NCBI RefSeq assembly: GCF_003441595.1
Contig: NZ_CP031848.1
Location: 1,860,001-1,924,000 of the forward strand
From: Marinobacter sp. Arc7-DN-1
GTDB taxonomy: Bacteria; Pseudomonadota; Gammaproteobacteria; Pseudomonadales; Oleiphilaceae
Length of the DNA stretch: 64,000 bases
Direction of reading: 5' to 3'
Position numbers and translations under genes: made by a program. Shown one piece after another: positions 60,058 through 61,554 of the stretch; within the stretch, counting starts at the first letter, position 1, and each line of letters opens with the position of its first letter. The notes beneath the pieces are model-generated. The model did no database searches, was not told the DNA's origin, and saw only the letters and a program-made list of their open reading frames with translations.

Positions 60058-60342
60058 ATGAAGGTCTTAGCCCGGAACAAGCTGACCGACTTCATGCGCA
60101 AGCACGCTTCCTCCAAGAAGGCTCTTGAAGCGTGGTATGCAGAGGCAGAAAGAAGCAACTGGCAGACACCACAAGACATCAAGAATCGATTCGCCAGCGC
60201 CGACTTTCTCGCCGATAACCGGGTCATATTCAACATCAAGGGCAATCACTTTCGGCTCGTGGTCAAGGTTCGGTACCAGGGTGGCATTGTCGTGGTGGAG
60301 TGGGTTGGAACACACGCGGACTACAGCAAGCAAAAACTCTAA
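60058..60342 (+). CDS. higB: HigB-family toxin (mRNA interferase)
   Basis: A 94-residue HigB-type toxin: MKVLARNKLTDFMRKHASSKKALEAWY at the N-terminus (quoted for family recognition only in part), WQTPQDIKNRFASADFLADNRVIFNIKGNHFRLVVKV region and YQGGIVVVEWVGTHADY at the end. HigB cleaves mRNA on the ribosome. ATG 60058 matches homolog starts; a TTG at 60022 is also open. The antitoxin gene follows 12 bp later, the reversed toxin-first order characteristic of higBA. Confidence 0.9.
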   Translation: MKVLARNKLTDFMRKHASSKKALEAWYAEAERSNWQTPQDIKNRFASADFLADNRVIFNIKGNHFRLVVKVRYQGGIVVVEWVGTHADYSKQKL

Positions 60343-60354
60343 GGAAACAGCATC

Positions 60355-61554
60355 ATGGACCATCTGAAAATCATTAAAACTCCGGAAGAGCATGAGGCTG
60401 CTCTGGAGCGCCTTATGGTACTGATGGACGCTGGCCCGCTGGAGGGTTCCCCGGAAGCTGACGAGCTGGAAGTGTTGGCTATGCTGATTGAGCAATACGA
60501 GCAACGCCAGTTCCCTATCGACCTTCCTGACCCTGTAACAGCCATTCGCTTTCGCATGGACCAGCAGGGCCTGAAGAATAAAGACCTCATTCCCTTTATC
60601 GGTTCAGCATCCAAAGTCAGTGAGGTACTGAATGGAAACCGCCCGCTCAGCCTGAATATGATTCGCCGGCTGAATCACGGTCTTGGCATACCGGCAGACA
60701 TCCTGATTCAGGAGCCCGTTCAGGAGACTGCCAGCGAAAAAAACGTCGACTGGCAAGCGTTCCCCTTGGCGGTCATGCTGAAGCGTGGGTATTTCGAAGG
60801 CTTCGAGGGTTCCCTTCAAGAACTGAAAGAATACGCAGCAGAGTGGTTGACGCGACTTTTCAGCGGTGTGCGAGGCGGTTTTGAGCTGGAACCGGCAATG
60901 CTGCGCACGGCCGCTCACCTTCGCACCAACGACAAGGTAAGCGACCGCTACGCCTTATGGGCCTGGCAGGCAAGAGTTTTACAGAAAGCCGCAGAGCAAC
61001 AACTACCTGGCTCATACAAAAAAGGCACAGTTACCCTGGAATGGATGCGTAATCTCACTCGGCTATCCTGGTCCGGGAAGGGGCCTGAACTGGCGCGGGA
61101 GTATCTTGAAAGGTCCGGCATCCATCTCGTTATTGAACCGCATTTACCCAAGACCTACCTTGACGGCGCAGCCTGCGTAGCTGCCAATGGCAACCCGGTC
61201 ATAGCGCTGACACTTCGGTATAACCGGCTCGATAACTTCTGGTTCACTCTCATGCACGAACTTGCCCACGTTGCGTTGCATCTGGACGGTAATGAAGCCT
61301 GGTTCATCGACAACCTGGATGCCGAAACCGAAGACGACCAGGAGCAGCAAGCCGACGCTCTTGCGCAAAGCGCATTACTGCCAGATAGCGTTAACTACCG
61401 ATCAATTACCCTAGCGGCCTCGGTCCGAAAGCTCGCAAATGAGCTGAATATTGCGCCAGCGATTATTGCCGGCAGAGTTCGACACGAAACGGGAAATCAC
61501 AGGCTGTTTGGAAGCGCCTTCAGAGAGAAAGTAGGCACCGAGCTCGAGTGCTAG
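60355..61554 (+). CDS. HigA-type antitoxin fused to an ImmA/IrrE (M78) metallopeptidase
   Basis: A 399-residue two-part protein. Residues about 1-120 are a complete HigA antitoxin (DELEVLAMLIEQYEQRQFPI then a helix-turn-helix KVSEVLNGNRPLSLNMIRRL). Residues about 130-399 carry an M78 peptidase with HExxH in FTLMHELAHVALHLDG. Usual HigA is about 100-130 residues. M78 proteins such as ImmA and IrrE cut repressors, so here the antitoxin carries its own protease (inference). Downstream remnants follow. Confidence 0.85.
   Translation: MDHLKIIKTPEEHEAALERLMVLMDAGPLEGSPEADELEVLAMLIEQYEQRQFPIDLPDPVTAIRFRMDQQGLKNKDLIPFIGSASKVSEVLNGNRPLSLNMIRRLNHGLGIPADILIQEPVQETASEKNVDWQAFPLAVMLKRGYFEGFEGSLQELKEYAAEWLTRLFSGVRGGFELEPAMLRTAAHLRTNDKVSDRYALWAWQARVLQKAAEQQLPGSYKKGTVTLEWMRNLTRLSWSGKGPELAREYLERSGIHLVIEPHLPKTYLDGAACVAANGNPVIALTLRYNRLDNFWFTLMHELAHVALHLDGNEAWFIDNLDAETEDDQEQQADALAQSALLPDSVNYRSITLAASVRKLANELNIAPAIIAGRVRHETGNHRLFGSAFREKVGTELEC

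What the first reader, a model, noticed from the sequence alone, without database searches (positions are those of the whole stretch)
60058..61554. HigA antitoxin fused to its own M78 protease
The antitoxin of a HigBA pair is extended by about 270 residues with HELAH. Proteolysis of antitoxins normally needs Lon or Clp; a built-in ImmA/IrrE-type peptidase suggests the trigger is sensed and executed within one polypeptide.
Basis: partly seen in the sequence, partly recalled or inferred. Interest (0 to 1): 0.6.

Follow-up and report, generated by a model that had tools for sequence, protein, structure and literature searches.

The report
HigB toxin with protease-fused antitoxin
A marine Marinobacter-type bacterium carries a two-gene toxin-antitoxin unit whose antitoxin is joined to a protease; it is a shorter relative of a known anti-phage defence system, and comparison with its relatives suggests why the two partners seem to swap roles in E. 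coli.

Summary
In detail: higB (60058-60342) is followed by a 399-residue protein (60355-61554) made of a HigA antitoxin (1-119), an ill-defined middle, an M78/ImmA-IrrE peptidase with HELAH (301-305), and a tail. It is not new in kind. PADLOC matches both proteins over full length to PD-Lambda-2 A and B (E 1.6e-47 and 3e-162), an experimentally found E. coli anti-phage system; HTH-M78 fusions beside RelE toxins, with proteolytic control, were proposed in 2009. Two things are worth keeping. (1) The window belongs to a branch that lacks the third gene (Beta protein, PD-Lambda-2C) that E. coli needs for defence. (2) In this branch HigB keeps the family signature R66-H86-Y89, whereas every E. coli-type A protein read here has lost it; in E. 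coli the fused protein B is toxic and A rescues. So the family contains two subtypes, both present in one genus. The metal site is invariant in 79 to 80 homologues, so the peptidase matters. Self-cleavage is a reasonable but untested mechanism; the substrate and trigger are unknown. Verdict: known kind, new variant, moderate interest.

The parts
60058..60342 (+). HigB toxin gene (94 aa), PD-Lambda-2_A; keeps R66, H86, Y89
   Evidence: PF09907 1.4e-29; PADLOC PD-Lambda-2_A 1.6e-47; AF2 pLDDT 95.7 and 6kml_A Z 16.5; residue conservation
60355..61554 (+). HigA-M78 fusion (399 aa), PD-Lambda-2_B
   Evidence: PADLOC PD-Lambda-2_B 3e-162 over residues 1-393; AF2 pLDDT 86.5
60355..60711 (+). HigA antitoxin part (residues 1-119: toxin-wrapping helices 10-26, 33-52 and HTH about 60-118)
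   Evidence: 6kmq_B Z 10.2, 35% identity; hmmsearch of A1 vs 5ycl/5ifg HigA E 1e-14
60712..61023 (+). middle region (residues 120-223), low-confidence hinges at 124-126 and 182-191; poorly conserved
61024..61392 (+). M78 (ImmA/IrrE) peptidase part, residues about 224-346; HELAH 61255-61269, H309 61279-61281, E330 61342-61344
   Evidence: PF06114 5.3e-10; CapP 7t5t Z 9.6; invariant metal-site residues
61393..61551 (+). C-terminal tail (residues 347-399), evolves fastest
   Evidence: mean identity 36%; dN/dS 0.12-0.26
60004..60045 (+). candidate operator: TTCCC-N5-GGGAA (60004-60018) and TTCCCGAAAAAGGAA (60031-60045) over the promoter-like site 60004-60031
   Evidence: the only perfect match in 64 kb, both kept in close relatives
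59650..59725 (+). tRNA-Phe gene, insertion site
   Evidence: ARAGORN
59679..59725 (+). left copy of 47-nt direct repeat (3' end of tRNA-Phe)
61752..61798 (+). right copy of the 47-nt repeat (98%), 2073 nt on; the pair lies between the copies with no integrase gene
   Evidence: flank comparison with relatives

Best explanation
A two-gene, mobile toxin-antitoxin unit of the PD-Lambda-2 family, probably an abortive-infection defence. HigB is a RelE-fold mRNA nuclease. The HigA part of the fused protein wraps HigB and binds the two TTCCC-N5-GGGAA sites to repress the operon. The M78 part is a metallopeptidase held inactive until a signal arrives; it then cuts the HigA part (its own or that of a neighbouring protomer), which frees HigB and lifts repression, so that translation stops. 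Shown here: the domains, an intact HigB signature, an invariant metal site, operator-like repeats, absence of the third gene. Inferred: toxicity, repression, defence. Not shown: protease activity, substrate, trigger.
For: Architecture and folds. Full-length match to an experimentally found phage-defence protein (PMC9519451). HigB intact in 24/24 readable members of the window's branch and under purifying selection. M78 metal ligands invariant in 79-80 homologues. The related M78 peptidases PprI/IrrE and CapP cut HTH repressors when activated by ssDNA (PMC10904395), and ImmA cuts ImmR (PMC10440598). HigA core alone coexists with an intact HigB in Marinobacter vinifirmus, where a deletion removed the peptidase and left a 27-nt remnant. 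Operator-like repeats.
Against: In the tested E. coli relative, B is toxic and A rescues, the opposite of this assignment; C, needed there for defence, is missing here. No cleavage site and no GAF-type ssDNA-sensing domain was recognised. M. vinifirmus shows that the unit can persist without the peptidase. No experiment exists for this branch.
Confidence: 0.45

Rival explanations
1. The peptidase is the effector. B is the toxic component, its M78 domain cutting host or phage proteins, and HigB acts as its inhibitor by binding the HigA part, as the E. coli overexpression data suggest; HigB nuclease activity is secondary or a second weapon.
For: PD-Lambda-2B alone is toxic and is rescued by A (PMC9519451). 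In the E. coli-type clade A lost R66/H86/Y89 while B kept HExxHxxxH, so there the nuclease is unlikely to be the effector.
Against: In the window's branch HigB keeps the full signature in 24/24 with dN/dS about 0.05-0.1, which a mere inhibitor would not need. Toxicity in E. coli came from overexpression and could be due to DNA binding.
Confidence: 0.25
2. An ordinary plasmid/island-type addiction module in which the peptidase only tunes turnover or transcription of the operon (like ImmA/ImmR), without a defence role in this two-gene branch.
For: Small cargo-only islet between tRNA-Phe repeats; lacks the C gene needed for defence in E. coli; peptidase lost in M. vinifirmus and split by a stop in a Marinobacter MAG.
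Against: Peptidase strictly conserved across the branch; some neighbours are defence genes, e.g. restriction-modification on pPsKG3_1 and a RosmerTA-like pair next to the window unit.
Confidence: 0.2
3. Decayed or inactive remnant.
For: Integrase is missing; related genomes carry broken copies (G068, G099).
Against: Both window ORFs are full length, with intact active-site residues, operator-like repeats and low dN/dS.
Confidence: 0.05

Closest known systems
PD-Lambda-2 (Vassallo et al. 2022, PMC9519451)
   Same: HigB-like A followed by HigA-M78 fusion B, same order and full-length homology; the E. coli B of locus L140 is 41% identical over 389 residues.
   Different: Window has no C (Beta) gene, and its HigB keeps R66/H86/Y89, which all readable E. 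coli A proteins lack.
HigBA of E. coli K-12 (type II toxin-antitoxin)
   Same: HigB fold (Z 16.5) and HigA fold of residues 1-119 (Z 10.2); toxin gene first.
   Different: K-12 HigA (138 aa) has no peptidase; a plain HigBA paralogue sits elsewhere in this genome.
RosmerTA (RmrA/RmrT) and spr1629-type HTH-M78 antitoxins
   Same: HTH fused to M78 peptidase next to a toxin gene (PMC10440598).
   Different: Different HTH type and toxins; window B reaches RmrA models only through the M78 part, E 2e-7.
IrrE/PprI-DdrO, ImmA-ImmR, CapP-CapH
   Same: M78 peptidase acting on a HTH protein; CapP is the closest solved peptidase.
   Different: Those are two separate proteins; no GAF domain recognised in the window protein.
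Xre-COG2856 fusions with RelE (Makarova et al. 2009, PMC2701414)
   Same: The same architecture class and the same proteolysis idea, from genome comparison.
   Different: In the passages read no C-dependence, HigB degeneration or subtypes are described.

Membership tests
PD-Lambda-2 | HigB-like A gene | tested here: met
   PDLC03981 1.6e-47, residues 1-93
PD-Lambda-2 | HigA-M78 fusion B, full length | tested here: met
   PDLC03982 3.4e-162, residues 1-393 of 399; plain HigA matches only profile 1-123
PD-Lambda-2 | third gene C (Beta protein) next in the operon, required for defence in E. coli | tested here: not met
   no C downstream; 0 of 25 rows in the window's branch, four of them cut too short to judge; the genome's only Beta protein lies 120 kb away beside another peptidase
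PD-Lambda-2 | protects against phage by abortive infection | not testable with these tools
   needs phage assays
HigBA type II toxin-antitoxin | HigB RelE-fold toxin with conserved residues | tested here: met
HigBA type II toxin-antitoxin | HigA-type antitoxin encoded just downstream | tested here: met
   residues 1-119
HigBA type II toxin-antitoxin | HigB toxic, HigA neutralises | not testable with these tools
   the E. coli relative showed the opposite
M78 (ImmA/IrrE) peptidase | HExxH and downstream acidic metal ligand | tested here: met
   H301, E302, H305, E330 invariant; assignment of E330 as ligand is inferred
M78 (ImmA/IrrE) peptidase | proteolytic activity on an HTH protein | not testable with these tools
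   needs a cleavage assay

The most novel reading that the evidence does not exclude
One gene architecture, two opposite wirings: in the window's branch an active HigB nuclease is held and released by its protease-fused antitoxin, without a third gene; in the E. coli-type branch HigB has decayed into a pseudo-toxin that now acts as antitoxin for the peptidase-bearing protein, with Beta as an added partner. That would be a toxin-antitoxin role swap caught within one family and one genus.
Probability: 0.35. Interest if true: 0.7.

Novelty: new variant of a known kind. Interest (0 to 1): 0.42.

Why it matters
PD-Lambda-2 has a puzzling published result (the antitoxin-like protein is the toxic one). 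The comparison here offers a simple explanation, loss of the HigB signature in the E. coli subtype, and names a natural counterpart without the third gene where HigB is intact. Testing both subtypes side by side would show whether a peptidase fused to an antitoxin is a release switch, an effector, or both, and could make the triggering of a toxin-antitoxin defence testable without Lon or Clp.

Tried and rejected
A hidden C gene in the window: none downstream; the only Beta protein of the genome belongs to another locus. Relatives in E. coli by DNA: the window operon finds nothing; E. coli copies were reached through the Pseudomonas relative L048. Viral origin: only five weak loci in viral contigs and partial hits in phages. 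Single origin of the fusion, by a tree of the HigA core with plain HigAs: unresolved, plain ones fall among fused ones (in one search three plain sequences were read in the wrong frame or strand, corrected). A GAF-type ssDNA sensor or a DdrO-type cleavage loop was not recognised, which excludes nothing. Follow-up papers on PD-Lambda-2 mechanism: none in the library.

Full report
What is there. The window (G000:C1 1860001-1924000, a 4.3-Mb genome; its genus is Marinobacter, inferred because genome G118 of the same genus has the contig length of M. vinifirmus NZ_NEFY01000001) holds higB at 60058-60342 and, 12 nt on, a 399-codon gene at 60355-61554. HigB is PF09907, and its model (pLDDT 95.7) matches E. 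coli HigB with Z 16.5, rmsd 1.2, over 94 residues. The second protein (model pLDDT 86.5) has a HigA part (1-119; 6kmq_B Z 10.2, rmsd 4.8, 108 aligned, 35% identity), a middle with two weakly predicted stretches (124-126, 182-191), an M78 part (7t5t CapP Z 9.6, rmsd 5.2, 155 aligned) and a fast-changing tail.

Is it more than chance. Eighty homologues keep H301, E302, H305 and H309 without exception, and E330 in 79 of 79 that have letters there. In the closest, least saturated pair (L003/L013) dN/dS is 0.05 in the HigA part, 0.06 in M78, 0.11 in HigB and 0.13 in the middle. HigB precedes B in nearly all loci with enough upstream DNA. Two operator-like repeats, TTCCC-N5-GGGAA and TTCCCGAAAAAGGAA, 27 nt apart, overlap the promoter-like site and are kept in L003, L013, L078 and L004; the perfect one is unique in 64 kb, although five matches with one mismatch allowed are not unusual (expected 3.0).

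What it is. PADLOC names both proteins PD-Lambda-2 (A 1.6e-47; B 3.4e-162 over full length). Vassallo et al. 2022 found PD-Lambda-2 by selection for phage resistance in E. coli: A is HigB-like, B a HigA-peptidase fusion, C related to a P4 antitoxin; it acts by abortive infection; B alone is toxic, A rescues, C is needed for defence against lambda-vir (PMC9519451). Makarova et al. 2009 had already listed HTH-COG2856 fusions with RelE and PIN toxins and proposed proteolysis of the Xre partner (PMC2701414). So neither the architecture nor the idea is new.

What is different here. (1) The third gene. C proteins are Beta proteins (PF14350; PADLOC PD-Lambda-2_C). In a tree of 76 B proteins, 39 loci have C; the window lies in a group of 25 with none, and 38 of the other 50 have it (the split is supported 99/86, the 25-row fork itself 93/46, 23 of them 99/94). 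Four of the 25 (L042, L020, L011, L019) end within about 700 nt and prove little. (2) The toxin. Among HigB proteins W26, A48, F58, R66, Y73, G84, H86 and Y89 are invariant in a set of 30, and solved E. coli and Shigella HigB keep R, H and Y at these places. R66-H86-Y89 is intact in 65 of 74 aligned A proteins and in 24 of 24 of the window's group, but lost in E. coli A (L140, L141, L142; L143 identical to L142), L036, L047, L048, L060, L074 and some others; the E. coli-type proteins simply end near residue 85-92. Their B proteins form one clade (0.994) and keep HExxHxxxH. That these residues are catalytic is inferred from the RelE fold (mutants of such C-terminal His/Tyr are in the PDB list), not tested. 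(3) Both subtypes occur in this genus: intact HigB without C in the window, G062, G066, G096 (G099 is similar but has a stop in B); degenerate A with C in G060 and G071. The reference system of the 2022 paper could not be identified by accession, so its A being degenerate is inferred from all E. coli copies that I could read (8 of 5426 complete genomes have one; four were read).

How it probably works. I favour a HigB nuclease held by the HigA part and set free when the fused peptidase, once triggered, cuts the HigA part (0.45). The rival is that the peptidase is itself the effector (0.25), which must be nearly true in the E. coli-type subtype if its A is dead as a nuclease. The degenerate A explains the published role reversal under either model. 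M. vinifirmus (L078/G118) has HigB with a 131-residue HigA only, 85% identical to the window and derived by deletion, since a 27-nt piece of the peptidase gene remains: the HigA core seems enough to neutralise HigB, and the peptidase is dispensable for keeping the pair. This rests on the viability of the strain, not on an assay.

Where it sits. The pair lies between two 47-nt copies of the 3' end of tRNA-Phe, 2073 nt apart, without an integrase. The flank right of the second copy resembles the sequence after tRNA-Phe in some relatives, in keeping with insertion at the tRNA, but flanks vary and an exact empty site was not established. M. vinifirmus and a broken copy in G068 also lie near tRNA-Phe; G019 reaches the common backbone about 370 nt after its tRNA-Phe. 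Many relatives have partial tRNA-Phe copies downstream, so this is an integration hotspot. Only 6 of 124 genomes of the genus have an unbroken full-length fusion, counting both subtypes.

Limits. No activity was tested. Absence of C rests on DNA next to the gene. The homologue set came from one scan seeded with this sequence. Synonymous distances are mostly saturated.

Noticed in passing
window 62340-63431 and 63394-63900: A second HTH-M78 fusion (RmrA/spr1629 type, HELGH; PADLOC RmrA 5e-57) overlaps a PIN-like ORF: a RosmerTA-like pair directly beside the HigB unit, so two peptidase-fused antitoxins lie in tandem behind tRNA-Phe.
   Followed up: partly
L125 6119-8427 (G000:C1 about 2040118-2042426): A 224-aa protein with hydrophobic stretches, a stand-alone M78 peptidase (CapP-like 2.8e-30) and a Beta protein (PADLOC beta 1e-46) in a row, near a type I restriction gene and an AbiEi-like gene: M78 plus Beta paired outside PD-Lambda-2.
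   Followed up: partly
L024 9194-11704, L030 9239-11731, L080 841-3339: In Chloroflexota relatives the fusion is followed by a shared protein of about 830 aa instead of Beta, possibly another partner.
   Followed up: no
L021 4039-5091: A DUF4062 protein gene overlaps the 3' end of the fusion gene by a few bases.
   Followed up: no
L002 1175-1863: PADLOC models of PD-Lambda-2 A and B also match plain HigBA (B only over profile 1-123), so loose annotation may over-call the system.
   Followed up: yes
L132 5666-7413: Another small islet between two tRNA-Phe 3' copies (1.7 kb) with an HNH-like ORF and a small toxin-antitoxin-like pair, by eye.
   Followed up: no
L060, L074, L053, L059, L076, L079: The HigB signature is lost in further lineages, some without C, so degeneration seems to have happened more than once.
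   Followed up: partly
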